From Pseudomonas tumuqii (lineage in GTDB: Bacteria; Pseudomonadota; Gammaproteobacteria; Pseudomonadales; Pseudomonadaceae), in contig NZ_JAAOJA010000011.1 in assembly GCF_013184545.1 (NCBI RefSeq), forward strand, positions 62,001 through 126,000: 64,000 nucleotides of DNA, in the 5' to 3' direction. Below are positions 45,448 through 62,536 of the stretch, in pieces. The position numbers and the translations under genes were made by a program. The notes beneath the pieces are model-generated. The model did no database searches, was not told the DNA's origin, and worked only from the letters and a program-made list of their open reading frames with translations. The first letter of the stretch is position 1; every line of letters starts with the position of its first letter.

Positions 45448-45508
45448 ACATCAAAGCCTTATATGTTCGTGATGACGGCTTCACTCTAGGCAAGCATGAC
45501 TCCCGTCA

Positions 45509-45518
45509 CATCCTCCCC
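45509..45518 (-). promoter_or_regulatory. MalT box before the alpha-glucosidase/malK operon
   Basis: Minus strand GGGGAGGATG, a perfect fit to the MalT consensus GGGGAKGAKG, continuing as TG. CTACGCC (complement of 45534-45540) lies 15 bases upstream. The gene begins 61 bases further on. Confidence 0.75.
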
Positions 45519-45555
45519 GCCGGGCTTTTCGCGGGCGTAGCTTGCGCCCGACGAG

Positions 45556-45565
45556 GGGGAGGAGT
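45556..45565 (+). promoter_or_regulatory. Second MalT-like box, opposite strand
   Basis: GGGGAGGAGT on the plus strand, nine of ten matches to GGGGAKGAKG. It may be a distal box for the same operon. Confidence 0.5.
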
Positions 45566-45597
45566 TTTTTCGCAACGATCATGCGCGGTGGAGGCCT

Positions 45598-45652
45598 GGT
45601 GCGCACGGCGCCCGCCTACACAGCGGACCGCGTAGGGTGCGTCGCGCGCACC
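45598..45652. repeat. REP element (GTGCGC family), degenerate pair
   Basis: GGTGCGCACGGCGCCCGCCTAC and GTAGGGTGCGTCGCGCGCACC (parts of 45598-45652) with several mismatches. Located between the malT 3' end and the alpha-glucosidase promoter. Confidence 0.75.
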
Positions 45653-45685
45653 GGGGCGGGGGAAATCGCGCAGGAGTACCCCGCC

Positions 45686-48430
45686 CTACTCGCCCTGGAT
45701 CTTGCTCAGCAGGCTGCGCGCCAGCTGTACCGCCTCGCTGCGCTGGGTGATGGCGAGCTTCTGGTAGAGGCTGCGGATATGGGTCTTGATGGTGGTCGGG
45801 GCGACGTTGAGGTGTTCGGAGATCTGCTCGTTGGACAGCCCGGCGTGGATCAGGCTGAGCACCTGCCATTCGCGCCGGGTCAGCGGTGAGTGGCGGATCA
45901 GCTCGGGCACGTCGGGGCGGTTGATGATGTCCTGGATCACCGCCTCGTCGAGGGTGATGCGGATCGCCCGGCTGAAGTCGCGCTGCTGCTGGGCCAGCTG
46001 GATCAGGCGGTCGGCGCGCTGGCCTTCCAGCTCGTCAAGCTGGCGTTCGTGCTGCAGGCCCTTGAGCATCGCGATCAGCGGTTTACCGATGCGCAGGAAG
46101 CTGCCGATCACCCCGGTGCTGCTGGCCAGGCTCAAGGCCTGGTGCAGATGGTCGAGGGCCGCCTGGCGCTCCTCGCGCTGCCAGAACAGCTGAGCCAGGA
46201 GGATATGATTGCGGTTCTGGTCCATCACCAGCTGGTGGCGCTCGGCGTCCACCTGCAACTGGCGCAGGATCGGCAGCGCGCGCTCGCCCTGGTTCAACGC
46301 CAGGTAGGCGCGCACATGGTTGCGCGCATTGCCCTGGGCGAAGTGGTTGGCCCCCGGTTTGAGCGGCGGCGCGGTGCTCAGCCACTGGCGGATGCTGTCC
46401 TTGTCCTGGGTCGAGTCCCAGTAGGTGAGCATCACCGCATGGGCATTGGCCAGCCAGTCGATATGGTAGTTGTCGCCGGCCAGCAGGCTCTGGATCTTGC
46501 CGATATAGTCGGCGCACACGCTCTGCTGGCCGCGGGCGTGAGCGACCCGGGCGAGCAGCACATAGCACTGCAAAAACCAGTGATCGCCCACCGCATCGAG
46601 GATTTCCAGGCCCTGCAGGGCGCACTGCTCCACCGCATCCAGGTGGTGCCACTCGAGCAGCACCTGGCCACGCACGCGGTGGATGAACTCCATGATCGGG
46701 GTCACCGGCAGCTGCTCCTGCTCGATGTACTGCAGCGCCCGTTCCTGCAGGTTGTAGGCCTTCTGCAGATGGCCCTGGGCGATGGCGATCTCCGACAACT
46801 GGCCGAGGCTCCACAGCACCGGGTGGGTGGCATCGATCTGCTGCGCGCGGCGCACGGTTTCCTCGTGCTGCTGCTGGGCCTGCTGCAGCTCGCCCTGGAC
46901 GAAATGCACCTCGGCCAGCACCGACATCGCCGCCACCCGCGAGGTGCGCATGGTCAACGGTTCGAAGGCCAGGGCCTCACGGGCGAAGGCCACGGCCTGC
47001 TGCAGATCGCCCTGGTTGATCGCCACCTGGGCGCGCACCGCCTTGAAATCCGCCTCGATGCGCTGCCACTGCTCAGGGCTGTGCAGGCCCTTCTGCGCCG
47101 CTTCGCCGGCCTGCAGCCAGCGCTCGACCTGGTCGCTCTGGTACTGGTTCTGCGAGGCCCAGGCCTGCAACAGGGTGAACAGCGGCGACTCGGCGATGGC
47201 GCTTTCCGGCAATACCGCCAGGCAGCGCTGCAGCAGGGCCAGGCGGCCCTGGCGATAGAACTGGCGACCGTGCGCCTCGAGGATCTGGGTCAGCCGCTGC
47301 GGATCGCGGGCGAGTACCGCGTGGCGCGCCGCCTCCTCCGGCATCTGCTCCTCCAGCAGCGCCTCGGCGGCGCGCAGGTGCAGTTCGGCGACGCGCTGTG
47401 GCTGATGGGTGCTCAGCTCGTTCTGCAGAAAGCAGGCGAACAGCGGATGGTAGGCGAACCACTGGCGCAGGCTGTCGACGGGCTGGATAAACAGGCCGGC
47501 ACGCTCCAGCGCCTCGAGCATCTCGCGGCCGTTGCAGCTCTCGGTCAGGCGGTCGGCCAGGGCCGCGCTGAAACGCTCGAGCAGGCAGGTGGCCTGGAGG
47601 AATTCCTGGGTCGGCGCGTCCAGCCCATCGAGCACCTGCTCGCGCAGGTAATCGCGGATATAGGGATGGCCGAGCTGCAGGCTCTCGAGGAACAGGTCCA
47701 TGCCGCGCCCGGTCTGTACTTCCTGCTGGGCCAGTTGCAGGGCGCAGGGCCAGCCGCCGATGCGCCGGTTGAGGCGCTCGACCTGCTCGCGGTTGATCGC
47801 GATCGGCAGGCCCAGCGCCAGCAGCTGCTGCACCTCGTCGTGCTCGAAGGCCAGCAGGCCGGCATCCAGCGCCAGCAGCTGGCGCTTGACCCGCAGTTCG
47901 GCGACACCGAGTTCCGGCAGGCCGCGGCTGCACACCAGCAGGGTCAGCCATGCCGGGCTGTTGCGCAGGAAGAAACGCAGCGCGGCGATCAGCTCGGGGT
48001 TGCGCAGCACCTCGAACTCGTCGAGTACCAGCAGCAGCGGCGGGTGTTCGGCCGGCAACTCGGCGAGCAGGCGGGTAAGCAGGCCGTCGAGGTCCTCCTC
48101 GCCCCGCTCGGCACGGGCCAGGCTTTGCGCACAACCGCCGTCGAGGCGGGCATGCAGGGCGTTGAGCAGGTAGCGGCCGAACTGGCGCGGGTTGTTGTCC
48201 TTGTCATCCAGGTTGACCCAGGCCACCGCACCGGCGAAGGCCGAGGCCCACTGGCTGGCCAGCACCGTCTTGCCGAAACCGCTGGGGGCCTGCAGCACGG
48301 CCAGGCGGACCTGGGGCAGGCGCTGCAGCCACTCGTCGAAACGCGGCCTGGCGAGCAGCCCGGGATGCAGGGCCGGCGCACAGAGCTTGGCCGGAATCAG
48401 CGGCAGCGGCTGAGCTAATGCAGCATTCAT
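45686..48430 (-). CDS. malT: Maltose regulon activator MalT
   Basis: STAND-family ATP- and maltotriose-dependent activator of 914 residues. The N-terminal NTPase has Walker A APSGFGKT (48-55) and Walker B-like LLLVLDEFEVL; a winged helix and a superhelical TPR-like domain fill about 240-840; the C-terminal LuxR-type HTH (about 848-905) reads LTRREWQVLSLIHAGLSNEQISEHLNVAPTTIKTHIRSLYQKL (given as landmarks). ATG has GGGAGTG upstream. It is encoded within the island it should control, and GGGGAGGATG boxes precede the alpha-glucosidase, malE and lamB genes. Similar LuxR-LAL regulators exist, but the context makes MalT firm. Confidence 0.93.
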   Translation of the reverse strand: MNAALAQPLPLIPAKLCAPALHPGLLARPRFDEWLQRLPQVRLAVLQAPSGFGKTVLASQWASAFAGAVAWVNLDDKDNNPRQFGRYLLNALHARLDGGCAQSLARAERGEEDLDGLLTRLLAELPAEHPPLLLVLDEFEVLRNPELIAALRFFLRNSPAWLTLLVCSRGLPELGVAELRVKRQLLALDAGLLAFEHDEVQQLLALGLPIAINREQVERLNRRIGGWPCALQLAQQEVQTGRGMDLFLESLQLGHPYIRDYLREQVLDGLDAPTQEFLQATCLLERFSAALADRLTESCNGREMLEALERAGLFIQPVDSLRQWFAYHPLFACFLQNELSTHQPQRVAELHLRAAEALLEEQMPEEAARHAVLARDPQRLTQILEAHGRQFYRQGRLALLQRCLAVLPESAIAESPLFTLLQAWASQNQYQSDQVERWLQAGEAAQKGLHSPEQWQRIEADFKAVRAQVAINQGDLQQAVAFAREALAFEPLTMRTSRVAAMSVLAEVHFVQGELQQAQQQHEETVRRAQQIDATHPVLWSLGQLSEIAIAQGHLQKAYNLQERALQYIEQEQLPVTPIMEFIHRVRGQVLLEWHHLDAVEQCALQGLEILDAVGDHWFLQCYVLLARVAHARGQQSVCADYIGKIQSLLAGDNYHIDWLANAHAVMLTYWDSTQDKDSIRQWLSTAPPLKPGANHFAQGNARNHVRAYLALNQGERALPILRQLQVDAERHQLVMDQNRNHILLAQLFWQREERQAALDHLHQALSLASSTGVIGSFLRIGKPLIAMLKGLQHERQLDELEGQRADRLIQLAQQQRDFSRAIRITLDEAVIQDIINRPDVPELIRHSPLTRREWQVLSLIHAGLSNEQISEHLNVAPTTIKTHIRSLYQKLAITQRSEAVQLARSLLSKIQGE

Positions 48431-48553
48431 ACAATCACTCCCGTTAATTGTCTTTGTATCGGGTAGCGGCAGATCTTACGCAACTTGCAGGCTCAAGCCT
48501 GCGCTATAAACGGCAAAAACCGGCATGCCCCGATAGCGGGTATGCAGGTGCCT

Positions 48554-48574
48554 GTAGGGTGCGCTGTGCGCACC
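48554..48574. repeat. REP element (GTGCGC family), single unit
   Basis: GTAGGGTGCGCTGTGCGCAC then C, one hairpin unit between malT and malG. Confidence 0.8.
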
Positions 48575-48631
48575 AATGGAGCCGTGACGCCACGACCTGG
48601 GCGCAATCAATGGCCACAGAGTTCATCCCAT

Positions 48632-48656
48632 GGTGCGCACGGCCTAGGCGGCCCCA
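48632..48656. repeat. REP variant with GGCCTAGGCGGCC insertion
   Basis: GGTGCGCACGGCCTAGGCGG then CCCC. The same variant appears inverted at 54766-54791, showing that a changed form has itself been copied. It faces the unit at 48554. Confidence 0.7.
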
Positions 48657-48681
48657 CACACCCCACAGCCAGGTTCAGTCC

Positions 48682-49572
48682 CTACCCCTTCACCCCGCCC
48701 GCGGTCAGGCCACCGACTATCCACTTCTGGCAGTAGAGAAACACCGCGGTGATCGGCAGGCCGGAGAGCACGGCGGCGGCGGCGAAGTCGCCCCACAGGT
48801 AGTTCTGCTCGTAGAGATACTGCTGGGCACCGACCGACAGGGTCAGTTTGTCGACGTCCATCAGCAATACCGAGGCAATCGGGTATTCGGTGATGCTGGT
48901 GATAAAGGCAAGGATAAACACCACGGCGAGAATCGGCACGCTCATCGGCAGCAGGATGTGCACGAAGGCCTGCCAGGTGGTCGCGCCGTCGACGATGGCG
49001 GCTTCCTCCAGGGAGGCGTCGATGCTCTCGAAATAGCCCTTGATGGTCCAGATATGCAGGGCCATGCCGCCCAGGGAGGCGACTATCACCGCGCCGTGGC
49101 TGTTCACCCCGAGCCAGCCGGCGTGCTTGCCCAACTGGTCGAACAGGGCGTAGATGGCCACCAGCGACAGCACCGGCGGGAACATCTGGAAGATCAGCAT
49201 GCCCTTGAGGATCGGCCCCTTGCCGGCGAAGCGCATGCGCGCAAAGGCGTAGGCGCTGGTGGTCGACAGCATCAGGATCAGCAGCGAGCTGATCAGGGCG
49301 ATCTTCAGCGAGTTCCACAGCCAGGTCAGCACCGGGAACGGCGGGTTGAGCAGCGTGCCGTTGTCCAGGGTGTAGGGAATGCCCAGGGCCAGCGACCAGT
49401 GTTCCAGGGTCGGCTGGTCCGGCAGCAGGCTGCCGGTGGCGAAGTTGCCCTCGCGGAAACTGATCGACACCACCATCAGCAACGGAAACACGATCAGGGC
49501 GATAAACCCGAGCAGCCCGGCGTGGGTCAGCCAGAGGCGGTATTTCACGGATTGCGGTTGCACCATGGCCAT
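48682..49572 (-). CDS. malG: Maltose/maltodextrin permease MalG
   Basis: Inner-membrane permease of 296 residues with about six TM segments. The EAA loop contacting MalK is [23 protein letters not shown], and the ending ([11 protein letters not shown]) is the conserved MalG C-terminus that reaches into the MalK dimer. Start ATG at 49572 has GAGGAGG eight bases upstream. Third gene of malEFG, 12 bases after malF. Confidence 0.95.
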
Positions 49573-49584
49573 CGGCGGGCCTCC

Positions 49585-51150
49585 TCAGACTTTGACTTTC
49601 GAGAGTTTCAGGTTGAGCCAGGCCATGCCGCCGACCACCAGGAAGATCAGGGTGGCGATGGCCGCCGCCAGGGCGAAGTTCTGCCCTGAGTCCTGGAACG
49701 CGATGCGGTAGGTGTAGCTCACCAGCAGGTCGGTGGTACCGGCCGGGGTGGTTGCGCCGATGATGTCCGGACCGCCGCGGGTGAGCAGGGTAATCAGCAC
49801 GAAGTTGTTGAAGTTGAAGGCGAAGCTGGCGATCAGCAGCGGCGCCAGCGGCTTGATCAGCAGCGGCAGGGTGATCTTCAGCAGGTTGTCCAGGGGCGTC
49901 GCGCCATCCATCGCCGAGGCCTCGTAGAGGTCGCGCGGGATCGCCTGCAACAGGCCCATGCTCAGCAGCAGCATGTAGGGATAACCGAGCCAGGTGTTGA
50001 CGATCAGGATCATGCTGCGCGCCAGGGTCGGGTCGCTGAACCAGTCCGGGCGCACGCCGAACAGGCTGTCGAGCAGCAGGTTGATCTCGCCGAAGTTCTG
50101 GTTGAACAGGCCGCGAAATACCAGGATCGAGATGAAGGCCGGCACCGCATACGGCAGGATCAACATGACCCGGTAGAACGCCTTGCCGCGCACCAGGTCC
50201 CACTGCAGCAGGCTGGCCAGGCCCAGGCCCAGGGCCAGGGTGAAGAGCACGGTGAGGCCGGCGAAGGCCACGGTCCAGACGAAGATTTCGAGGAAGGGAT
50301 CGCGGATGCTCGGCTCGCTCAGCACCCGGGCGAAGTTGCTCCAGCCGGCGTACACGGTGAAACCGGGGGCCACCTTGCTGCCGTGGCTGTCGACATAGAA
50401 GCCGCTGCCCTGATCGGCCTCCAGGCGCTCATTGCTGCGGGTATTGAGCAGGTCGCCATTGTCCAGCAGGCGGTACAGCGGCTTGACCGCCGCCACCTCG
50501 CGCAGGCCATAGAGGCGCAGCAACTCGCCGTCGGCGCCGCGCAACACCCACTGTTCCAGTTCAGCGCGGCGTTGGATCACCTCGCGCAGCGGCAGGGCTT
50601 CGGCCAGGCTCACGGCGCTGTCCGGCAGCAGCTCCAGCGGCTCGCTGAGCAGCGGATCGCCCTGCAGCGGCGGCGAGACAAACACGCCCTGCTCGCCCTG
50701 GTCCACCCGCAGGCGCAGTGCGCCGGCGTCATCCGCGTGCAGGCTGAAGGCGAAGCGCTCGCCGGCCAGGTAAGTCTGATTGAGGTGATAACGCTGCACC
50801 TGCTCGAAACTCAGCAGATTGGTCGCGCTGTAGTTGGTAAAGCCGATGCCCACCGTGTACAGCAGCGGAAAGATCACAAACACCAGCATGCCCGCCACCG
50901 CCGGGTAGATATAACGGTGGGCATAGGCTTTCTTGCTGATAAAAACGTAACTGGCGATACCGGTAACCACCAACCCGAGCAGGGCGAAGGCGACCTGCTG
51001 TTGGGCGTAAAGCGCCACCACCAGGTACAGCGCCAGGGCGTTGAACAGCCCCCAGACAGACCAGCGCAGGGGCTGACGCAGGTACGCAAAAGCGGATGTT
51101 CGGGTCATGGCAGGGCTGACCGGTGCGATTGAAAATTCCAGGGCTGACAT
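49585..51150 (-). CDS. malF: Maltose/maltodextrin permease MalF
   Basis: Inner-membrane permease of 521 residues. About eight TM segments are present, with a large periplasmic loop (about 150-290) between TM3 and TM4, the P2 loop that contacts MalE in E. coli. The EAA loop is DLYEASAMDGATPLDNLLKITLPLL. Start ATG at 51150 is preceded by TTGAGG; an ATG at 51108 is an alternative. Co-transcribed with malE (58-base gap) and malG. Confidence 0.94.
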   Translation of the reverse strand: MSALEFSIAPVSPAMTRTSAFAYLRQPLRWSVWGLFNALALYLVVALYAQQQVAFALLGLVVTGIASYVFISKKAYAHRYIYPAVAGMLVFVIFPLLYTVGIGFTNYSATNLLSFEQVQRYHLNQTYLAGERFAFSLHADDAGALRLRVDQGEQGVFVSPPLQGDPLLSEPLELLPDSAVSLAEALPLREVIQRRAELEQWVLRGADGELLRLYGLREVAAVKPLYRLLDNGDLLNTRSNERLEADQGSGFYVDSHGSKVAPGFTVYAGWSNFARVLSEPSIRDPFLEIFVWTVAFAGLTVLFTLALGLGLASLLQWDLVRGKAFYRVMLILPYAVPAFISILVFRGLFNQNFGEINLLLDSLFGVRPDWFSDPTLARSMILIVNTWLGYPYMLLLSMGLLQAIPRDLYEASAMDGATPLDNLLKITLPLLIKPLAPLLIASFAFNFNNFVLITLLTRGGPDIIGATTPAGTTDLLVSYTYRIAFQDSGQNFALAAAIATLIFLVVGGMAWLNLKLSKVKV

Positions 51151-51208
51151 CTTGTTATAGCCTCAAGCAAGGCGGTTGCCGACGTTCGGCGTCGGCAACC
51201 GCCGGTTG

Positions 51209-52396
<1,188 letters not shown>

Positions 52397-52498
52397 TGGG
52401 TGAGAGTCCTCGTGGCTTCTTGTTGTTGATCCACAACCGCTGCAGGCCGGTGAATGGTCGCGCAGCCCTTGCATCCTCGGACAGAACCACAAGCGCCA

Positions 52499-52508
52499 CA
52501 TCCTCCCC
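52499..52508 (-). promoter_or_regulatory. MalT box before malEFG
   Basis: Minus strand GGGGAGGATG (perfect consensus) continuing TGGCG. Two CTACGCC elements (complements of 52525-52531 and 52539-52545) stand upstream, 16 bases away and 7 apart. Confidence 0.78.
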
Positions 52509-52652
52509 CGGCGCAGCTCGCGAGGGCGTAGAGACGGGGGCGTAGTCTGCCAGCCGCCAGCGAAAAAAAGTATGCGCACCGGCCCTTTCCACGCCTGCCG
52601 CAGACGGCAAAAACCGACTTCAATGGCGGCTCAACCGTACCGGGAGAAGTTC

Positions 52653-54713
52653 ATGCGCCGCTCGTCACCGCTGCTCGCCAGTCTGCTTATCGCCATGCTC
52701 AGTCCTCTTGCCCAGGCAGCCCCGCAGTTGCAGGCCTGGCTCGACCAGCAGCCGCTGCAGCTGCTCTGGCACAGCGAAGCTAGGCAGCGTTACAGCAGCG
52801 AACTGGAGCTGCAGCCCGGCCTGCTGACCCTGCGCGGCCCCGCCAGCGTGGAGCCGGCGCAGGCCCTGGCGCTCTACCAGCGCCAGGCCTGGCAGGCCGA
52901 CAGTCACCTGAGCCTGCAGGTACCGACGGCCGGACGCTATCGTTTGCTGTTCCAGGACGGCGACGACGCGCACCTGCGCCTGCTGCCGATCAAGGCGGCG
53001 GCCGTCAGTCAGGTCGCCTGCACAGCTTGGCAGGGCCAGGCCCTGAGCGTCGATGTCAGCCGGGTATTCGCCGACGGCCAACAGCTGCGCGATGGCTATA
53101 GCGGACAACTGGCGACGGTCGAAGACGGCCAGGTGCGGATGACCCCGGCCCCCCACAGCGGCGGCCTGCTGTTGCTCGAAGCCGCCGCGGCGCAAGCCAA
53201 GCCGGCCCACGACTGGCGCAACGCCACGGTGTATTTCGCCCTCACCGATCGCTTCGCCAACGGCGACCCGAGCAACGACCGCAGCTACGGTCGCCAGCCC
53301 GACGGCGAGCAGGAAATCGGCACCTTCCACGGCGGCGACCTCAAGGGCCTGACCGGCCAGCTCGACTACCTGCAGCAGCTTGGGATCAGTGCGCTGTGGA
53401 TCAGCGCGCCCATTGAACAGATCCACGGCTGGGTCGGCGGCGGCGACCAGGGCGACTTTCGTCACTACGCCTATCACGGCTACTACGCCCTGGATTTCAC
53501 CCGCCTGGACGCCAATATGGGCAGCGAGGACGACCTGCGCGAGCTGATCGCCCAGGCCCACGCCCGCGGCATCCGCGTGCTGTTCGACGTGGTGCTCAAC
53601 CACCCCGGCTACTCGACCCTGGCCGATATGCAGGAACTCGGCTTCGGCGGCCTGCGCGACGGCATGGCCCAGTACCTGCCGCAGCGCTGGAGCGACTGGC
53701 AGCCGGAGAGCTACGAGAACCTGCACGCCTACCACAACCTGCTCGACTACCAGCACCCGGACTGGAAGCAATGGTGGGGCAAGGACTGGCTGCGGGCCGG
53801 CATCGCCGACTACGACAGCCCGCCGAGCGTGCTGGTCGATCCGCTCAAGGGCCTGCTGGCGTTCCTTCCCGACTTCAAGACCGAAAGTGAGCAGGCCGTG
53901 ACGCTGCCGCCCTTTCTGCTGCGCAAGGCCGATACTCGTGCGGTGCCGCGCGAGGGCTACCGGGTGCGTGACTATCTGGTGGAATGGCTGACGTTCTGGG
54001 TACGCGAGTTCGGCGTCGACGGTTTTCGCGCCGACACCGTCAGGCATGTCGAGCTGGACAGCTGGGCGGCGCTACGCCAGGCGGCCGACCAGGCCCGCGC
54101 CGAGTGGTCGGCCGCCAACCCCCTTGATCCCATGAGCGGCAGTCCGTTCTGGATGGTTGGCGAAGTATTCGGCCACGGCCCCCAGGCCAACGTCTACCAG
54201 AGCAACGGCTTCGACGCCCTGATCAACTTCGCCTTCCAGGGCGAACTGGCGGCCAAGGCCAGCGACTGCCTGAGCCAGGCCGATAGCGGCTACGACGAAT
54301 ACGCCGGGCTGCTGCAGAACAGCCCTGGGCACAACTTCATGAGCTACGCCTCGTCCCACGACACCTCGCTGTTCTTCGCCGAACAGCACAATGACCTGAC
54401 GCGCCAACAGGGCCTGGCCGCGGCCCTGCTGCTCAGCCCCGGCGCGGTGCAGATCTACTACGGCGACGAAAGCGCCCGCCGCCTCGGCCCCAGCAGCTCC
54501 GACCCGTATCAGGGCACGCGCTCGTCGATGAACTGGGCGGCGCACCAGCAGCCGCCCATCGCCGCCCTGCTCGACCACTGGCGCATCCTCGGCCAGTTCC
54601 GCGCGCGCCACCCCGCCATCGGGGCCGGCAGCCACCAACGGCTATCCAGCCAGCCCTACGCCTTCGCCCGCCGCCTCGGCGAAGACAAGGTGGTGATCGT
54701 TCAAGGGCCGTAA
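52653..54713 (+). CDS. malS: Periplasmic alpha-amylase, MalS-like
   Basis: GH13 enzyme of 686 residues. Signal peptide MRRSSPLLASLLIAMLSPLAQA, cleaved before APQ. An N-terminal beta-rich region (about 25-180) is followed by the barrel: YFALTDRFANGDPSND, FDVVLNHPGYS, GVDGFRADTVRHVE with nucleophile D461, WMVGEVFGHG with E504 and YASSHDTSLFF with D570. This layout is that of E. coli MalS (676 residues), which trims maltodextrins in the periplasm. The C-terminus ends abruptly at VVIVQGP, just before a REP element. ATG at 52653 has GGGAGAAG upstream; divergent from malE. Confidence 0.87.
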   Translation: MRRSSPLLASLLIAMLSPLAQAAPQLQAWLDQQPLQLLWHSEARQRYSSELELQPGLLTLRGPASVEPAQALALYQRQAWQADSHLSLQVPTAGRYRLLFQDGDDAHLRLLPIKAAAVSQVACTAWQGQALSVDVSRVFADGQQLRDGYSGQLATVEDGQVRMTPAPHSGGLLLLEAAAAQAKPAHDWRNATVYFALTDRFANGDPSNDRSYGRQPDGEQEIGTFHGGDLKGLTGQLDYLQQLGISALWISAPIEQIHGWVGGGDQGDFRHYAYHGYYALDFTRLDANMGSEDDLRELIAQAHARGIRVLFDVVLNHPGYSTLADMQELGFGGLRDGMAQYLPQRWSDWQPESYENLHAYHNLLDYQHPDWKQWWGKDWLRAGIADYDSPPSVLVDPLKGLLAFLPDFKTESEQAVTLPPFLLRKADTRAVPREGYRVRDYLVEWLTFWVREFGVDGFRADTVRHVELDSWAALRQAADQARAEWSAANPLDPMSGSPFWMVGEVFGHGPQANVYQSNGFDALINFAFQGELAAKASDCLSQADSGYDEYAGLLQNSPGHNFMSYASSHDTSLFFAEQHNDLTRQQGLAAALLLSPGAVQIYYGDESARRLGPSSSDPYQGTRSSMNWAAHQQPPIAALLDHWRILGQFRARHPAIGAGSHQRLSSQPYAFARRLGEDKVVIVQGP

Positions 54714-54720
54714 AAACCTT

Positions 54721-54791
54721 GGTGCGCACAGCGCACCCTGCGACAACGCGAACCCCGTAGGGTGCGCGGGGCCGCCTAGGCCGTGCGCACC
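54721..54791. repeat. REP element pair with variant right unit
   Basis: Left unit GGTGCGCACAGCGCACCCTG; right unit GTAGGGTGCGCGGGGCCGCC then TAGGCCGTGCGCACC, carrying the GGCCGCCTAGGCC variation also seen at 48632. It starts 7 bases after the malS-like stop and ends 21 bases before the next ATG. Confidence 0.82.
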
Positions 54792-54812
54792 AGCTCCCCC
54801 AGAGGTACCGAT

Positions 54813-55892
54813 ATGACCCCGGAACAACAACGCCAGCAGGCCCAACTGGCCTTCGCCGCCAGCAACGCCGACATCCAGGTCGGCCAGGCCGCCGACTGTC
54901 CGCTGCCCATCGAACAACTGCTGCTGACCACGGCCGCCAGCCCCTGGGTGCGTCGCCACTTCGCCAGCGGCCTGACCGCCGAGGTCTACCAGATCGAGGC
55001 CGACGGCAGACTCTGGACGCTCAAGCGCGCGCGGGCGCACTGCAAGGTGCAGAACCTCAACGGCCAAACCTCCTTTCTCAACGAGGTGCAGCGCCGCGCC
55101 GAACTGCAGGCCCTGAAACAGCAACCGGCCTGGGCCGCGGCGCTAAGCGGGATAGTCGCCACCCAGTACGCCAGCTATCGCCAGGGCCTGCTGCTGTCGC
55201 CCTGGATCGCCGGCGAAGCCGTACAGGAGTGGGACGAGCGCCGCCTGCTGCAGCTGTTCGCCAGCCTCTCGGCGCTATTGCAACTGGGCTTCTTCGACTG
55301 GGACCTGTGCCCGGGCAACCTGCTCGACGACGGCCAGATCCGCCTGTTCGACTTCGGCTATATGTACCGCTTCGACCCCTTGCGCGCCTGCAACAGCAAC
55401 GGCCTGCTGACCCCGCAGTGCCACGCCGCCGAACGCTTCGAAACCCGCAGCTACTACGCCTACCTGCTCGAGCTGGAACAGCGCCGGGGTAGCGCCGCCG
55501 CCCTCAGCGCCCTGGAACTGGAAAAACGCATCGCCCTGGAGTGCTACCAGCACCTGCGCCACACCCTGGCCCGGTGCGGGGCATGCCACGACGTATTGAC
55601 CTGGCTGGATGGCATCATCGGCGACTGGCAACAGGCCCTGCGCCACGACCTCGCCCGCCTCTACCTGCGCGAAGCCTGGCGCTCGCACTGGAGCGACCTG
55701 GACGACGACCTGCAAGGCCAGACCTGCACCCCCCTGACCCTGCAACGCCTGGATTGGCTGACGGAATGCCTGGACGCTCAGGGCTCGGAGTTACAACGCC
55801 TGGACCTGCTGCAAGACAGGCCCGTGGCTGCCTGGCGACAACAACTCGAACAGGCACGGGAACAGGCCCTGGCCTGGCAGGTCGGTGGTTAA
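54813..55892 (+). CDS. Protein-kinase-fold phosphotransferase of unknown substrate
   Basis: 359 residues, soluble, no signal. It shows a degenerate eukaryotic-like/aminoglycoside kinase fold: ATP lysine candidate K71 in WTLKRARA, helix-C Glu near 93 (LNEVQRRAEL), catalytic loop FFDWDLCPGNLL with D164 and N169, and the magnesium motif FDFGYMY with D180-F-G. The C-terminal third (about 215-359) is helical and Cys-containing (LARCGACHDVL). I do not recognise the family by name. It follows the malS-like gene by 99 bases in the same direction, so it may act on a maltodextrin or on a protein of the mal system, but no known maltokinase motif was recognised. ATG follows AGAGGTACCGAT. Confidence 0.6.
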   Translation: MTPEQQRQQAQLAFAASNADIQVGQAADCPLPIEQLLLTTAASPWVRRHFASGLTAEVYQIEADGRLWTLKRARAHCKVQNLNGQTSFLNEVQRRAELQALKQQPAWAAALSGIVATQYASYRQGLLLSPWIAGEAVQEWDERRLLQLFASLSALLQLGFFDWDLCPGNLLDDGQIRLFDFGYMYRFDPLRACNSNGLLTPQCHAAERFETRSYYAYLLELEQRRGSAAALSALELEKRIALECYQHLRHTLARCGACHDVLTWLDGIIGDWQQALRHDLARLYLREAWRSHWSDLDDDLQGQTCTPLTLQRLDWLTECLDAQGSELQRLDLLQDRPVAAWRQQLEQAREQALAWQVGG

Positions 55893-55922
55893 CCTACGAA
55901 AGAGCCCCCAGCAGCGCACGCC

Positions 55923-55943
55923 GTAGGGTGCGCCATGCGCACC
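55923..55943. repeat. REP element (GTGCGC family), single unit
   Basis: GTAGGGTGCGCCATGCGCAC then C, 30 bases after the kinase-like gene stop. Confidence 0.85.
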
Positions 55944-56032
55944 GCGACTTGCGCGATTCTTCGCCAAATGCCACCCCATTCTGCGACAGCAATTTGACCG
56001 GTCGCTAGCCTGACAGATCGGCGTTTAACCCC

Positions 56033-56117
56033 GGTGCGCACGGCGCACCCTACGGGACCGCTGCCAACCCAGCACCGCCGCAAGGCACCGCATTTCGTAG
56101 GGTGCGCCGTGCGCACC
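56033..56117. repeat. REP element pair downstream of the RAYT gene
   Basis: GGTGCGCACGGCGCACCCTA (56033-) and GTAGGGTGCGCCGTGCGCAC (56097-) in inverted orientation, 43 bases apart; ends 13 bases from the RAYT stop. Confidence 0.9.
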
Positions 56118-56130
56118 GCGGCTTGCGCGG

Positions 56131-56664
56131 TCACTCGCCGACCGCGCCCTCCGCGTCCCCGCCACCGCCCCAATCCGCCGGGTATACGCCTTCGCGCACC
56201 AGGCGGTGATAGCTCGACCAGGGCCAGTCGGCCACCCGCTCGACCAAACCATGGCGCACCGGGTTCCAGTGCAGATAGTCCAGGTGCCGGCGGTAATCCT
56301 CGTCATCGCGGATGCGGTGTTCCCAGAAGCGCCGTTGCCACAACCCGGACTCGCGGCGCAAGCAACGGCTCAGGCTGATCGCCCCCGGCGCGCGGGGTAG
56401 CGCCTGGCTGGTCAACCGCTTGATCAGCGACCAGCGCAGGCCGAAGTCGGCATCGCCCGCGGGCAGCTGCCACAGGCAATGCAGGTGATCGGGCAGCAGC
56501 ACCCAACCAGCAATAGTGAAGGGATAACGCTGACGCACCTGGACGATGGCCAGGCGCAGGGCTTCGCGCAGCCTCGGCTGGGTCAGCACGGGCTGGCGCT
56601 GGTGGGTCACTAGAGTGAAGAAATAGCAGGCACCCGGATCCCGGGCGCGGCGGTAGTCGGACAT
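56131..56664 (-). CDS. REP-associated tyrosine transposase (RAYT)
   Basis: IS200/IS605-like Y1 transposase domesticated to mobilise REP hairpins. It has 177 residues. The HUH metal motif is H60-L-H62 in LLPDHLHCLW, and the catalytic tyrosine is Y130 in HLDYLHWNPVRHGLV, followed by the WPWSSYHRL motif shared by RAYTs. Start ATG at 56664 is preceded by AGGCGACAGGGA; no IS ends flank it. GTAGGGTGCGC-type REP units border it on both sides (56033-56117, 56709-56729 and 56775-56837), as expected for a RAYT with its cognate REPs. Both catalytic motifs are intact, so it may be active. Confidence 0.9.
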   Translation of the reverse strand: MSDYRRARDPGACYFFTLVTHQRQPVLTQPRLREALRLAIVQVRQRYPFTIAGWVLLPDHLHCLWQLPAGDADFGLRWSLIKRLTSQALPRAPGAISLSRCLRRESGLWQRRFWEHRIRDDEDYRRHLDYLHWNPVRHGLVERVADWPWSSYHRLVREGVYPADWGGGGDAEGAVGE

Positions 56665-56708
56665 TCCCTGTCGCCTCAACGTTGATCGCCCCGCAAGGAT
56701 AGGCCATG

Positions 56709-56729
56709 GGGCGCACGGCGCACCCTACG
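56709..56729. repeat. REP element upstream of the RAYT gene
   Basis: GGGCGCACGGCGCACCCTAC then G, 45 bases upstream of the RAYT start, in opposite orientation to the unit at 56097. Confidence 0.82.
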
Positions 56730-56744
56730 CCAGAGCTTGTGAAC

Positions 56745-56768
56745 ATATCGAGCGCCGTCGCGAGAGCG
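56745..56768. repeat. Partial copy of the structured repeat (left end)
   Basis: ATATCGAGCGCCGTCGCGAG then AGCG matches 22 of 24 bases at 15179-15202. It stops where a REP unit begins, as if the REP had inserted into it. Confidence 0.5.
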
Positions 56769-56774
56769 TCTGCT

Positions 56775-56837
56775 GGTGCGCGCGGCGCAGCCGCCATATT
56801 GGTCGCGCCGGATGCCGTAGGGTGCGCCATGCGCACC
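56775..56837. repeat. REP element pair, left unit degenerate
   Basis: GGTGCGCGCGGCGCAGCC (56775 on) and GTAGGGTGCGCCATGCGCAC (56817 on), inverted. It ends 13 bases from the chemoreceptor stop. Confidence 0.82.
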
Positions 56838-56850
56838 GGGCGTTGCCCCC

Positions 56851-58890
56851 TCAGGTCAGGTAGCGGCCACACAGCGCCTGCTGTTCGGCGACCATTGCCG
56901 CCTGGCGCACACTGGTTTCGCTGATGCCGACGAGGCGCTGCATATTGCACTCGGCCACCGCGTGAATGGCATGCATGCTGCGCGTCACCTCCTCGGCCGC
57001 CTGTTGCTGCTGGGCGGTGGCCTGGCTGATCTGCCGCGACATGCCGGCGATATCGCCGACCTGCTCGCGAATCTGCTGCATCACGCCGTCGGCCTGACTG
57101 ACCTGGGCGAGGTTGGCCTGCATGCGCTGCCGGCTCAGCTCCACCGACTGCACCGCCACCTGGATACCCTGGACCAGACACTCGATACGCGACCGGATCT
57201 CCCCGGTCGAGCTGGCCGTACGCAGGGCCAGGTTGCGCACTTCATCGGCGACCACAGCGAAGCCTCGACCCTGTTCGCCGGCCCGGGCGGCCTCGATCGC
57301 GGCATTCAGGGCCAGCAGGTTGGTCTGCTCGGCGATGCCGCGAATCACCTCGAGGATCTGCCCGATCTGGGCACTGAAGGCTTCGACCTTGGCGATTTCG
57401 TCCACGCTGCCCTGCAGCTGCTCGGCCAGTTCGCGGGTGCTACCGATGGTGCCGGTCATGATGCGGCTGCCGTCGCTCACCCGATCCTCGACGCTGCCGA
57501 CCCGCTCGGCCGTGTCCTCGGCATGCCGGGCGACCTCGGCGAAGCTCGACTCCAGCTGGGTCAGGCTGGTCGCCAGCGCACCGATGCTCGAACGCTGCTG
57601 TTCCAGGCCCTCACGCGCCTCGGCGCAGGAACCGGTATTGCTGCGGGCGATGGCGTCCTGTTCGTTGGCGGCGTGGCCCAGCCGGGCCAGGGCATCGCGC
57701 AGGTTGCCGGCGACCCGGTTGACGTCCGCTGCGACCCGGCCGAATTCATCCGCACGGCGGTAATCGCACTGGCCGCGCAGGTCGCCCTCGGCCAGCCGGT
57801 TCAGGGCGCCGGAAACCGCGCCCAGGGCCCGGCGCATGGTGCGGCTGAGCCACACGCCCATGCCCAGGGCGATGCCGAGCGACAGCGCGGCCAGCCACAG
57901 CAGGCGGTCGAAACCGCTGCGGTAGGTCGCCCGCGCCTGCTCGAGTTGGGCCTGGGCGTCCCGCTCGCCCGCCTCGATCAGCCGCTCGACCTGCTCTCCC
58001 ACCTGCCCCTGCAGCCCCTGCAGCAGGCGCTTGCGCTCGTGGTTGCGCTGCTTGTCGGCGAGCCAGCCGGCGTACTGGCCCAGGGTACCCTGGCCGTCGA
58101 GGAGGATGTTGCGCTCGATCTCGGCGAATTCGCCCAGGTAGGTGTGGGCGTAGTCGGTGCGGCTGTCCTGGTGCGGCTTGAGGTCGTCGAGCACCCGGCC
58201 CAGCTTGTCGCGCAGGTTCGGCAGGCGTTCCCTGACCTTGACCTCGGCCTGCTCCAGGCGCTGCAACGATGCGCTGCCGACGGCATCGAAGATCAGCGCC
58301 TCGACCTGTTCCAGGGGAATGATGAACTGCTTGAGCGAGTAGGCCACGTAGTCGTCCTTGGTGCCGGCCTGCACCCTGAGCAGATCCTGCTTGAAGCGCG
58401 ACAGCTGCAGCTGCAGATCGCGCAGCGCCACCGCGGTCTTGTCGACCCGCTCCAGCAACTGACGCTGCGCCTGCAGCAGCGCCTGGCTCTGCGCATCTAG
58501 CTGCGGCAGCAGCTGCACCAGCAGCGCCAGGGCCGGCTGCTCCGGGCTGCTGCCGCTGCCGCGCATGCGCTCGAGGCGCGCGCCGACCTGCTCGGCGCGC
58601 TGCCGGTGTTCGGCGACGAACGCCTCGAGATCCTCGGCGCGCTCCGCACCCAGGGCATCGGAAATATTCTGGGTCAGGCCTTGCAGGGCGCTGAAAAAGT
58701 TCTGGCTGGCCTGCAGCCGCGCAGCGGTGCGCGCGAGGCGCTCACTGTTGCCCTGCAGGTCGGCGATGGCGGCCAGGCTGCTGCCGCCCAGCAACACCAG
58801 CAACAGGGCTAGCGCCGCGATAAGTAGGTAGAGCCGGGACAGGAAGCCGAACTCGAGCGCGGCGAACCTGTTGGCAATGGAGGACAACAT
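56851..58890 (-). CDS. Methyl-accepting chemotaxis protein
   Basis: Transmembrane chemoreceptor of 679 residues. TM1 is about residues 17-45, the periplasmic helical sensor domain about 46-325, TM2 about 328-350 ([20 protein letters not shown]), then HAMP (about 350-402) and the cytoplasmic coiled coil. The signalling tip [40 protein letters not shown] is canonical (given as landmark). The C-terminus has no CheR-binding pentapeptide. Start ATG at 58890; the TTG at 58902 is possible. It sits between the amylase genes, suggesting that it senses maltodextrins directly or through a binding protein (inference). Confidence 0.9.
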
Positions 58891-58947
58891 CCTTCTCTCC
58901 AATCGATAAGGGCCGGGCCGGCGGGTCGCCCCGTCGGCCCGGCAGGC

Positions 58948-60627
58948 TCAGAAGCTACCGCTGGTGGAGGCACCGGCGGCGCTGGTCAGGCTGTTGTTGG
59001 CACCCGGCTGCCAGCTCTTGACCTGGGTCGGGTTGCTTTCATTACGAATGATGCATTTCCATTCGAGGGCCTGCTGCGCGGGCAGGCTGATCGCACCGCG
59101 CCAGGTCGGATAGCCGCTGGTGTCGCTCAGCAGCACGGCGGCGGCCGGGCTCCAGTTGCCCAGTTCGCTGCTGTTGCCCACCGCATAGACGCTGTCACCC
59201 GGCTGGGTCACGCCGTTGTCGCAGCGAAAATTCACGCTGACCAGATCGCCGTCGCCACCACTGCCGGTGCCGGTGCCGGTGCCGGTGCGCCAGATGCGCA
59301 CCTGACCGTTGTCGCTGGTCAACGCCTGACTGAAGTCGCCACTGGCCACCTGGCCGGGGCCTTCGAGGTTGGAGTCGAGGGCGATCAGCAGTTGCTGCTG
59401 ACTACCGCTGACGGTCGCCACCAGGCCGCTGAACCCCGCGTGGAACTGGATCGCCGAGTCGGCCTTGATCCCCGCCGCACGGCGGATCTGGATCAGCTGG
59501 CGAATAAAGTCGCCGTACCCCCAGTCATACATGTGCGACCAATAGACCACCGGCATGCCGGGGCTGGCGAGGATATAGGCATAGGCCCGCTTGAGCAGGT
59601 GATCGGGCAACGGCCAGTGGTGCTGGCCGCCGTTGGGGCCGGGCGAATAGCCGGTGTCATGGTTGTCGACGAAGGTCACCGCCACCTCGCGCCAGCGTGG
59701 GTCGGGGTTGCCGTTCAGGCCATGACGCCAGTCGCTGACGCTGCCGTTCTGCATGCGTTCCTTGAGGGCGAAGTCGAAGATGGTGCACTTGGCCCGGTCC
59801 GACCAGTCCTTGAGGATCTGCTGCCAGCTCGCGCCGTTGCGCCAGTCCCAGCTCGGATACTCGCCCGGAGCCTTCCACAGCTCGCCGACGCAGAAGCCGT
59901 CGTCGTGGGCCTGGCCCATCCAGCTGTCGACCCGCTCGCCGGCGTAGCCACGGACGAAATCGAAGCGCAGCCCCGCGCCGCCGTAGTTGTTGCGCAGGTT
60001 GGCGAACTCCTGCTGGAACATCGCCTGGTTCTGCGGGTGACCGGTGTTGAGGTCGGCATCGCCGCCGACAAAGCGGTCGCCGTCGTCGCAGTCGTTGGGG
60101 TAGTTGCCGGGATCGGCGCAATCGTTGCGCCACAGGCCCTGGCCCGCCGGCAGGTTGATTTCCTTGTCCGGATAGCCGCGGTTCATGTGGTTGGGCACCA
60201 CGTCGTAGATCGGTTTGACCCCGGCACCGTTCAGCGCGCTGGCAGCCTGCTTGAGCAGGCTGTCGCTGCCGTAGCGGCCGTTCTTGTTGAAGTCGTGCCA
60301 GAAGTAGCCCTCGCCGCCGCCCGAGGTGCCGTTGCTGGAGTCGCTCCAGCTGGAGAAGTCGCGCCACGGCACCGGCATCCAGATGGCGCTGAAACCGTCC
60401 GCGGCGATGCTCGGTGCCATGCCGGCGAGGGTGCTGTACCAGTTGTTGGGAGCGGTGCGCACGACGTTCCAGTGAAAGCCTTGCAGGATGATTTCGTCGC
60501 CGCCGTGGTAGCGCACGCCATTCGGCGATTTGCCCGCGGCTTCGGCCGCCTCGAGCAGGCTGCCGTAGGGGTACGCCAAGGGCGTCAATGCCAGGACCAA
60601 CCCGGCAAGTCGCAGGTATCGTTTCAT
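58948..60627 (-). CDS. amyP: Secreted maltotetraose-forming alpha-amylase with CBM20
   Basis: Exo-acting G4-amylase cutting maltotetraose from starch ends, 559 residues. The signal peptide ends near residues 30-31 and the mature start AGKSPNGVRYHGGDEIILQG is nearly that of the P. stutzeri enzyme. Catalytic residues are D223 (GLRFDFVRGYA), E249 (CVGELWK) and D324 (FVDNHDTG). A Gly/Thr linker (448-461) leads to a CBM20 starch-binding domain (462-559, with YAVGNSSELGNWSP). Long identical stretches with P. stutzeri AmyP as I remember it make the specificity assignment firm. ATG at 60627; divergent from lamB. Confidence 0.94.
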   Translation of the reverse strand: MKRYLRLAGLVLALTPLAYPYGSLLEAAEAAGKSPNGVRYHGGDEIILQGFHWNVVRTAPNNWYSTLAGMAPSIAADGFSAIWMPVPWRDFSSWSDSSNGTSGGGEGYFWHDFNKNGRYGSDSLLKQAASALNGAGVKPIYDVVPNHMNRGYPDKEINLPAGQGLWRNDCADPGNYPNDCDDGDRFVGGDADLNTGHPQNQAMFQQEFANLRNNYGGAGLRFDFVRGYAGERVDSWMGQAHDDGFCVGELWKAPGEYPSWDWRNGASWQQILKDWSDRAKCTIFDFALKERMQNGSVSDWRHGLNGNPDPRWREVAVTFVDNHDTGYSPGPNGGQHHWPLPDHLLKRAYAYILASPGMPVVYWSHMYDWGYGDFIRQLIQIRRAAGIKADSAIQFHAGFSGLVATVSGSQQQLLIALDSNLEGPGQVASGDFSQALTSDNGQVRIWRTGTGTGTGSGGDGDLVSVNFRCDNGVTQPGDSVYAVGNSSELGNWSPAAAVLLSDTSGYPTWRGAISLPAQQALEWKCIIRNESNPTQVKSWQPGANNSLTSAAGASTSGSF

Positions 60628-60742
60628 CGTAGAGCTCCATTTTTTTAGTTGTAGAGAGCATCCGACTACAGGGGATGTGTTGCGCGGGCGGACACCTGGG
60701 TCCACTCAGCCGCGCCAGCTTGGCGCTGCGCGCGCCAGCGCC

Positions 60743-60752
60743 ATACCTCCCC
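60743..60752 (-). promoter_or_regulatory. Imperfect MalT box before the G4-amylase gene
   Basis: Minus strand GGGGAGGTAT (seven of ten to GGGGAKGAKG), then GGCG. CTACGCC elements (complements of 60768-60774 and 60781-60787) lie 15 bases upstream and 6 apart, the same layout as before malE and the alpha-glucosidase gene. Confidence 0.55.
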
Positions 60753-60861
60753 TGGGCACTTTCTTGCGGCGTAGCTGGCAGGCGTAGACGCCACCTCACC
60801 CCACCCCCTACCCGACTCCACGGCGCTACGCCCCGGACACTCAGCCTTGAAAAAAACTGCC

Positions 60862-60871
60862 GGGGAGGATG
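60862..60871 (+). promoter_or_regulatory. MalT box before lamB
   Basis: GGGGAGGATG (perfect) continuing TGGCG, with CTACGCC at 60826-60832, 29 bases upstream. The lamB ATG is 185 bases further on, so the leader would be about 150 bases. Confidence 0.72.
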
Positions 60872-60894
60872 TGGCGCGGGTGGCCGATCCATGA

Positions 60895-62328
<1,434 letters not shown>

Positions 62329-62430
62329 CAGCCTGCTGCTGAGCTGTCGCGCAACCCCTACCTGGCGGGCCCCCGTTGCATCCGGGGGCTTTAGCCGGTC
62401 GATGCTTCAAACGCTGCTCCAGTAGTTTTT

Positions 62431-62463
62431 GCCCCGGACCTGCAACAGGCCGGGGCCCTTTTT
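62431..62463 (+). terminator. Terminator after lamB
   Basis: GCCCCGG-a-CCTG - caa - CAGGCCGGGGC then CCTTTTTC. It may allow partial read-through into malM. Confidence 0.8.
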
Positions 62464-62536
62464 CGAAGAGGCCGCTCACCCATACCCAAGCGCGTGAACC
62501 GGGCTCACAGGCGTGAACACAATAAGAGGAACAACC

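What the first reader, a model, noticed from the sequence alone, without database searches (positions are those of the whole stretch)
45509..60871. MalT regulon with a conserved promoter layout: CTACGCC, N6-7, CTACGCC, N15-16, GGGGAGGATG
Perfect MalT boxes precede the alpha-glucosidase, malE and lamB genes, and a weaker one precedes amyP. Three of the four also carry CTACGCC 15-16 bases before the box, doubled at malE and amyP. The CTACGCC element is not part of the E. coli MalT consensus; it could be a second, inverted MalT recognition form or a site for another regulator.
Basis: partly seen in the sequence, partly recalled or inferred. Interest (0 to 1): 0.6.

Follow-up and report, generated by a model that had tools for sequence, protein, structure and literature searches.

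The report
MalT promoters with variant upstream sites
In this bacterium the CTACGCC elements in front of the maltose and starch genes sit exactly where E. coli's maltose activator MalT has its upstream binding sites, so they are most likely MalT sites in a second spelling rather than sites for an unknown regulator.

Summary
Perfect GGGGAGGATG boxes precede aglA, malE and lamB; GGGGAGGTAT precedes amyP. CTACGCC lies upstream in fixed register. With the box hexamer as 0, TACGCC starts at -23 (aglA), -38/-24 (malE), -36/-23 (amyP) and -37 (lamB, whose -23 site reads TCAGCC). E. coli malP has TCATCC at -36, TCCTCC at -23 and CAAACT at +28; window amyP has TACGCC, TACGCC and CAAGCT at the same three places. 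CTACGCC thus fills the slots of the inverted upstream MalT sites. In the window plus 17 Pseudomonadaceae loci, 62 of 62 extracted mal promoters carry TACGCC in one or both slots, 33 in both. Outside that group, exactly 13 bp upstream of TACGCC stand canonical TCATCC/TCCTCC in 14 aglA promoters or intermediate TACTCC in 22 malE cases, among 49 regions. In 298 genomes of the genus, 6 of 6 with MalT have the spaced pattern, beside mal genes; 11 of 292 without MalT have a hit, none beside mal genes. The layout is known from E. coli; the lineage-wide spelling is a modest variant. MalT binding is inferred, not shown.

The parts
43819..45447 (-). alpha-glucosidase gene (GH13, called aglA here), first gene with the layout
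   Evidence: Pfam Alpha-amylase 2.3e-121
45483..45488 (-). putative -10 of aglA, TAGAGT, 28 bp after the start of the box hexamer
   Evidence: TAGAGT at +28 in 14 of 15 aglA promoters
45509..45518 (-). promoter-proximal MalT box of aglA, GGGGAGGATG
   Evidence: hexamer GGAGGA = position 0
45534..45540 (-). inner upstream site of aglA, CTACGCC (hexamer at -23)
45686..48430 (-). malT, the proposed activator
   Evidence: TPR_MalT 1.6e-79, GerE (LuxR HTH) 1.3e-18, AAA_16 6.6e-08
48682..49572 (-). malG
   Evidence: BPD_transp_1 4.7e-16; place after malF
49585..51150 (-). malF
   Evidence: MalF_P2 6.3e-36
51209..52396 (-). malE
   Evidence: SBP_bac_1 1.7e-38; the 80 loci listed are 58-94% identical
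52473..52478 (-). putative -10 of malE, GAGGAT, 28 bp after the start of the box hexamer
   Evidence: GAGGAT (12) or GAGTAT (6) in 18 of 18 malE promoters
52499..52508 (-). promoter-proximal MalT box of malE, GGGGAGGATG
52525..52531 (-). inner upstream site of malE, CTACGCC (hexamer at -24)
52539..52545 (-). outer upstream site of malE, CTACGCC (hexamer at -38)
58948..60627 (-). amyP, maltotetraose-forming amylase gene
   Evidence: AMT4_dom_C 2.9e-34, CBM_20 1.2e-22
60717..60722 (-). putative -10 of amyP, CAAGCT, 28 bp after the start of the box hexamer (E. coli malP: CAAACT)
60743..60752 (-). weaker promoter-proximal MalT box of amyP, GGGGAGGTAT
60768..60774 (-). inner upstream site of amyP, CTACGCC (hexamer at -23)
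60781..60787 (-). outer upstream site of amyP, CTACGCC (hexamer at -36)
60826..60832 (+). outer upstream site of lamB, CTACGCC (hexamer at -37)
60840..60846 (+). degenerate inner upstream site of lamB, CTCAGCC (hexamer at -23)
   Evidence: best match in this slot is CTCAGCC (2), CTCCGCC (5) or CTGCGCC (7) in 14 lamB promoters
60862..60871 (+). promoter-proximal MalT box of lamB, GGGGAGGATG
61057..62328 (+). lamB, maltoporin gene
   Evidence: LamB 1.4e-122
62540..63460 (+). malM-like gene downstream of lamB
   Evidence: MalM 1.5e-32

Best explanation
The four promoters are MalT-activated promoters of the same build as E. coli malP. One MalT protomer binds the promoter-proximal box GGGGAGGATG, whose hexamer starts 28 bp before the -10 and so covers the -35 region. 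Two further protomers bind a direct repeat of inverted sites 13-14 bp apart, about 23 and 36 bp upstream. In this lineage those two sites are spelled TACGCC (read from the other strand, GGCGTA) instead of TCCTCC or TCATCC (GGAGGA or GGATGA). Both spellings fit one degenerate hexamer, GG[A/C][G/T][G/T]A. Maltotriose-activated MalT would multimerise and hold the sites cooperatively, the near one recruiting RNA polymerase. Shown here: the register, its conservation, the interchange of spellings within one slot, and the tie to malT. Inferred: that MalT binds TACGCC, and that the sites are needed.
For: (1) Same slots as E. coli malP: TCATCC -36, TCCTCC -23, -10-like CAAACT +28; window amyP TACGCC -36, TACGCC -23, CAAGCT +28. 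(2) Conservation: 62 of 62 extracted promoters of aglA, malE, lamB and amyP (4 of the window, 58 of 17 Pseudomonas, Stutzerimonas and Atopomonas loci) have TACGCC in one or both slots; 45 inner, 50 outer, 33 both; 1000 shuffles of the upstream 100 bp give 0.29 promoters on average with either, maximum 3. The spacers between the sites differ. (3) Interchange: among 49 promoter regions outside the Pseudomonadaceae, exactly 13 bp upstream of TACGCC there is TCATCC (7) or TCCTCC (7) in 14 aglA promoters, and TACTCC, one letter from each form, in 22 malE cases. Within the Pseudomonadaceae, Stutzerimonas nosocomialis aglA (L030) has TCCTCC in the inner slot. (4) E. coli malE has GGCGTA 13 bp before GGAGGA, with GAAACT at +28. 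(5) In 298 genomes of the genus, malT is in 6. CTACGCC-N15-16-GGGGANGA is in 6 of those 6, all 9 hits beside mal genes, and in 11 of the 292 others, 11 hits, none with a match to nine mal proteins in the 3 kb fetched; reversed control pattern 6 hits in 6 genomes; Fisher p 1.3e-8. (6) The MalT HTH is nearly the same in E. coli and the window: ATTIKTHIRNLYQKL against PTTIKTHIRSLYQKL.
Against: TACGCC differs from TCCTCC at 2 of 6 positions, so a consensus scan would not call it. No binding or expression data exist here for this lineage. Of five E. coli promoters looked at, only malP shows both slots; malS has one (-24); malK has inverted canonical hexamers at -27, -37 and -40, a different register; malE has its second site in direct orientation; malZ shows no such arrangement with strict hexamers. 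The amyP proximal hexamer is GGAGGT and the lamB inner site TCAGCC, both imperfect. Outside the Pseudomonadaceae, 18 of 49 promoter regions (all malE) have no canonical proximal box, and of the 31 with one, 26 have TACGCC in the inner slot and 5 do not. Loci are related, so counts are not independent events. That the malP hexamers and GGCGTA of E. coli malE are proven MalT sites is my recall, not a tool result.
Confidence: 0.9

Rival explanations
1. CTACGCC is the site of a second regulator that acts together with MalT, for example a carbon-status or starch regulator.
For: The word differs from the published MalT hexamer, and in the Pseudomonadaceae loci the -36/-23 slots hold TACGCC or a drifted form, with a strict canonical hexamer in one case only (L030 aglA), while the proximal box is canonical or GGAGGT (the box was the anchor, so its own constancy is partly by choice).
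Against: The slots coincide to the base with the E. coli malP upstream slots; canonical MalT hexamers and one-letter intermediates stand in the same slot in relatives; hits in malT-less genomes are not near mal genes; among the 12 proteins of the cluster that were scanned, only MalT has a known DNA-binding domain.
Confidence: 0.07
2. CTACGCC in the promoters is a by-product of repetitive or skewed sequence: REP elements (which contain CCCTACG) or the common Tyr-Ala codon pair TAC GCC.
For: CTACGCC is over-represented window-wide, 30 against 8 expected; 22 of 30 are in a TAC GCC reading frame and one lies in a REP-like repeat.
Against: The six promoter copies lie between genes, without the flanking REP letters, and the same word sits in fixed register to the box in 62 of 62 promoters with unlike spacers.
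Confidence: 0.02
3. The CTACGCC sites are old MalT sites that are decaying: once TCCTCC, now TACGCC, with little or no binding.
For: Two positions off consensus; lamB inner and amyP outer slots drift (CTCAGCC, CTCCGCC, CTGCGCC, TTCCGCC).
Against: TACGCC is the commonest and most uniform spelling, in both slots of malE in 18 of 18 promoters, while spacers diverge; decay would give varied letters.
Confidence: 0.04

Closest known systems
E. coli K-12 malPQ promoter (malPp)
   Same: Proximal GGATGA in sense orientation, two inverted hexamers at -23 and -36 (13 bp direct repeat), -10-like CAAACT at +28
   Different: Upstream hexamers are canonical TCCTCC and TCATCC; here TACGCC
E. coli K-12 malEFG promoter (malEp)
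   Same: Has GGCGTA, the reverse complement of TACGCC, 13 bp from a canonical GGAGGA
   Different: There it stands in the same orientation as the proximal box, not inverted
E. coli K-12 malS promoter
   Same: Inverted TCATCC at -24 and CAAACT at +28, like the single inner site of window aglA
   Different: Canonical hexamer
malPp800, a mimic of the Klebsiella pulA promoter with four MalT sites (PMC10427625, passages seen)
   Same: More than two upstream sites per promoter, as in aglA and lamB of Stutzerimonas
   Different: Site sequences and spacing were not seen
Actinoplanes sp. SE50/110 MalT motif TCATCC-5 nt-GGATGA (PMC7567727, passages seen)
   Same: Inverted canonical hexamer upstream of a sense hexamer over the -35
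   Different: One inverted site, 5 nt spacer, and MalT there does not activate the mal genes
[quoted passage not shown] only the title seen, in a reference list)
   Same: The title states the direct repeat as a motif of all maltose regulon promoters of E. coli and K. pneumoniae
   Different: Text not held; whether it lists GGCGTA as a site was not seen

Membership tests
MalT-dependent promoters | A MalT homologue (STAND ATPase, MalT TPR sensor, LuxR-type HTH) encoded in the genome | tested here: met
   window 45686-48430, TPR_MalT 1.6e-79, GerE 1.3e-18, AAA_16 6.6e-08; HTH near-identical to E. coli
MalT-dependent promoters | Promoter-proximal hexamer GGA(T/G)GA over the -35, starting 28 bp before the -10 | tested here: met
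   GGAGGA in aglA, malE, lamB; amyP has GGAGGT, so 3 of 4 strictly. -10-like hexamer at +28 in aglA, malE, amyP and at +29 in lamB. Transcription starts not mapped.
MalT-dependent promoters | Further MalT sites in direct repeat, about 13 bp apart | tested here: met
   malE 14 bp, amyP 13 bp, lamB 14 bp with one degenerate copy; window aglA does not meet it, having TACGCC and TCCTCC 24 bp apart. 33 of 62 promoters have exact TACGCC in both slots
MalT-dependent promoters | Every site matches GGA(T/G)GA (not defining: E. coli malE has GGCGTA at -13) | tested here: not met
   Upstream sites are TACGCC = GGCGTA, 4 of 6 letters
MalT-dependent promoters | MalT protects the sites in a footprint | not testable with these tools
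   Needs purified protein
MalT-dependent promoters | Induction by maltose or maltotriose that depends on malT | not testable with these tools
   Needs expression data

The most novel reading that the evidence does not exclude
MalT reads two distinct hexamer words, GGA(T/G)GA and GGCGTA, with one HTH, and in Pseudomonadaceae the words have been sorted by position: GGAGGA where MalT meets RNA polymerase, GGCGTA in the inverted -36/-23 pair, as if the word sets the affinity or the posture of the protomer in the array. (Canonical inverted hexamers still occur further out, at -46/-47 in aglA and lamB of some loci.)
Probability: 0.35. Interest if true: 0.5.

Novelty: new variant of a known kind. Interest (0 to 1): 0.3.

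Why it matters
It widens the MalT site from GGA(T/G)GA to GG[A/C][G/T][G/T]A with a promoter grammar (-36, -23, 0, -10 at +28). A scan with that grammar should find maltose and starch regulons in Pseudomonas, Stutzerimonas, Marinobacter and relatives that a consensus scan half misses. It also gives a natural series of site swaps (TCATCC, TCCTCC, TACTCC, TACGCC in one slot) for asking how a multimeric STAND activator reads asymmetric sites in both orientations.

Tried and rejected
Word counting alone: CTACGCC is over-represented window-wide for other reasons (22 of 30 in TAC GCC frames, one REP copy), so counts prove little. REP origin of the promoter copies: rejected on register and flanks.

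A search for more regulon members in the own genome with TACGCC-N14-18-GGAKGAT gave two cluster promoters (aglA, malE) and one further hit on contig C3, not followed up. The pattern cannot see amyP (GGAGGT) or lamB (degenerate inner site), so it is not a full regulon scan. malK was not looked for by protein search and was not located.

A class-wide search for MalT (369 genomes, E below 1e-60) found 4 genomes, three of them not the own one. I scanned the 5.7 kb locus of the most similar (L123, 44% identical MalT) for the layout and found no match; the rest of that genome was not searched. Aeromonas malE upstream regions (500 bp, 17 loci) show isolated hexamers in 5 and no array; how malE is regulated there was not pursued. 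I could not test conservation of GGCGTA in malE of other enterobacteria.

Literature: eight searches. Among the entries listed I saw no paper on MalT sites in Pseudomonas or on CTACGCC/GGCGTAG as a MalT site. Searches listed only the top 10-20 of 641, 88, 561, 35 and 69 papers; one search used a cut-off word with whole-word matching and so tests nothing; the classical MalT papers are not held as far as tried. I saw passages only, of PMC4381067, PMC10427625, PMC3726413, PMC8265627, PMC7567727 and PMC6468293.

Promoters were extracted only from L026-L072 and L093; one, aglA of L044, was dropped because its match began at residue 127. The 49 regions leave out malE of L068-L071 (53 regions), which show no such sites and have no MalT match in the locus; many Marinobacter loci that I kept have no MalT match in the locus either, since the flank may not reach it. 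malE of L073-L092 and L094-L105 was only scanned for hexamers. In one search anchors were loose (69 anchors for 62 promoters); one search picked a wrong anchor for amyP of L031, and one search mended this by requiring the GGAGGT type for amyP. The proximal box is used as anchor, so its own conservation is not evidence. L067 malE counts as anchored, but its anchor (GGATGA at -247) is not the mal box.

Full report
What is there. Window 43819-63460 holds a maltose and starch cluster: alpha-glucosidase (aglA here), malT, malG, malF, malE, an alpha-amylase gene, amyP (maltotetraose-forming amylase with starch-binding domain), lamB and malM. GGGGAGGATG occurs exactly three times in the window, before aglA, malE and lamB; amyP has GGGGAGGTAT. 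CTACGCC stands upstream of all four.

Register. With the box hexamer as 0, the upstream hexamers start at: aglA TACGCC -23 and TCCTCC -47; malE TACGCC -24 and -38; amyP TACGCC -23 and -36; lamB TACGCC -37 and TCAGCC -23. A -10-like hexamer starts at +28 in aglA (TAGAGT), malE (GAGGAT) and amyP (CAAGCT) and at +29 in lamB (GACGCT).

E. coli comparison. In K-12, malP has TCATCC -36, TCCTCC -23 and CAAACT +28. malS has TCATCC -24 and CAAACT +28. malE has GGCGTA -13 in direct orientation and GAAACT +28. malK has inverted canonical hexamers at -27, -37 and -40 of its GGAGGA, and malZ shows no such arrangement with strict hexamers (sequences). So one of five K-12 promoters is superimposable on window amyP and one more shares one slot. 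That the malP upstream hexamers are proven MalT sites, and that GGCGTA of malE is one, is recalled; here I saw only the title of the 1991 paper on direct-repeat MalT sites and the consensus GGA(T/G)GA with flanking G residues (PMC7567727, passage).

Conservation. A malE search gave the best 80 of 584 loci. In the window plus 17 Pseudomonas, Stutzerimonas and Atopomonas loci there are 62 extracted promoters (malE 18, aglA 15, amyP 15, lamB 14). All 62 have TACGCC in the inner (-25 to -21) or outer (-39 to -34) heptamer slot: inner 45, outer 50, both 33. Shuffling 100 bp upstream 1000 times gave on average 0.29 promoters with either (maximum 3) and 0.001 with both. Between -120 and +47, TACGCC outside these slots is limited to a third upstream position: hexamer -60 in aglA (9 of 15) and -56 in lamB (7 of 14). 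The spacers differ between loci.

Interchange of spellings. Outside the Pseudomonadaceae, in 49 promoter regions of Marinobacter, Marinobacterium, Hahella, Balneatrix and others, exactly 13 bp upstream of TACGCC stand TCATCC (7 aglA promoters), TCCTCC (7 aglA promoters) or TACTCC (22 cases, all malE; 23 malE loci if 12-14 bp is allowed). Within the Pseudomonadaceae, 29 TACGCC pairs are 13 bp and 4 are 14 bp apart. Stutzerimonas nosocomialis aglA has TCCTCC in the inner slot itself. One slot, four spellings, two of them canonical MalT hexamers: the simplest account is one protein, and one degenerate hexamer GG[A/C][G/T][G/T]A covers them.

Against. In 18 of those 49 regions, all malE, no canonical proximal hexamer was found; of the 31 with one, 26 have TACGCC in the inner slot and 5 (lamB of L044, L045, L093; malE of L067, L072) do not. 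In the 8 malE regions printed in full, GGCTGA, GGGTGA or GGGGGA stands where the box should be. So the proximal box also drifts, and the neat rule 'canonical near, TACGCC far' is not universal. The loci are related; counts are not independent.

Tie to malT. In 298 genomes of the genus, 6 have MalT at E below 1e-100. CTACGCC-N15-16-GGGGANGA hits 17 genomes: all 6 with MalT (9 hits, each with aglA, malT, malE or the amylase gene in the 3 kb fetched) and 11 of 292 without (11 hits, none with a match to nine mal proteins in the 3 kb fetched). The reversed control pattern gave 6 hits in 6 genomes, so single hits in malT-less genomes are near the chance level. Fisher p is 1.3e-8. The MalT HTH is nearly the same from E. 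coli to the window, so no change of protein specificity is needed to explain the spelling.

Mechanism. Most likely, maltotriose-activated MalT multimers bind the inverted direct repeat and the proximal box together and recruit RNA polymerase, as described for E. coli (multimerisation and cooperative binding: PMC4381067, passage). The step from sequence to binding is inferred.

Verdict. The layout is known from E. coli, the systematic TACGCC spelling is a modest variant, interest 0.3.

Noticed in passing
window 45558-45564 (-): Canonical inverted MalT hexamer CTCCTCC further upstream of aglA (hexamer -47), also at -46/-47 in L026-L028; 9 of 15 aglA promoters, all Stutzerimonas-type loci, have TACGCC at -60 instead, so aglA promoters seem to carry a third site about 24 bp beyond one of the pair.
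   Followed up: partly
window 55900-56850: A small Y1 transposase-like gene (56131-56679, Pfam Y1_Tnp 4.1e-05) beside inverted GTGCGCACGGCGCACCCTACG repeats (56029-56054 and 56096-56121; further GCGCACCCTAC copies at 56718, 56827 and elsewhere): looks like a RAYT with its REP elements, inside the mal cluster.
   Followed up: partly
window 60717-60871: amyP and lamB are divergent and share a short intergenic region in which the two site arrays face away from each other.
   Followed up: no
L073-L075, L077-L089, L091 (17 Aeromonas loci): malE upstream regions (500 bp) show no MalT-type array (isolated hexamers in 5 of 17) although MalE is about 58-61% identical; regulation there may differ.
   Followed up: no
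L047-L050, L052-L059, L061-L066 (mostly Marinobacter malE): 18 malE promoters lack a canonical proximal box; in the 8 malE regions printed (7 of these 18 plus L067), CTACGCC and/or CTACTCC sites are followed by GGCTGA, GGGTGA or GGGGGA in the box position.
   Followed up: partly
window 54813-55892 (+): A conserved gene between the amylase gene and the REP region, which I labelled a kinase in scripts without any Pfam match; best matches 52-74% identical in the Pseudomonadaceae loci that have it.
   Followed up: no
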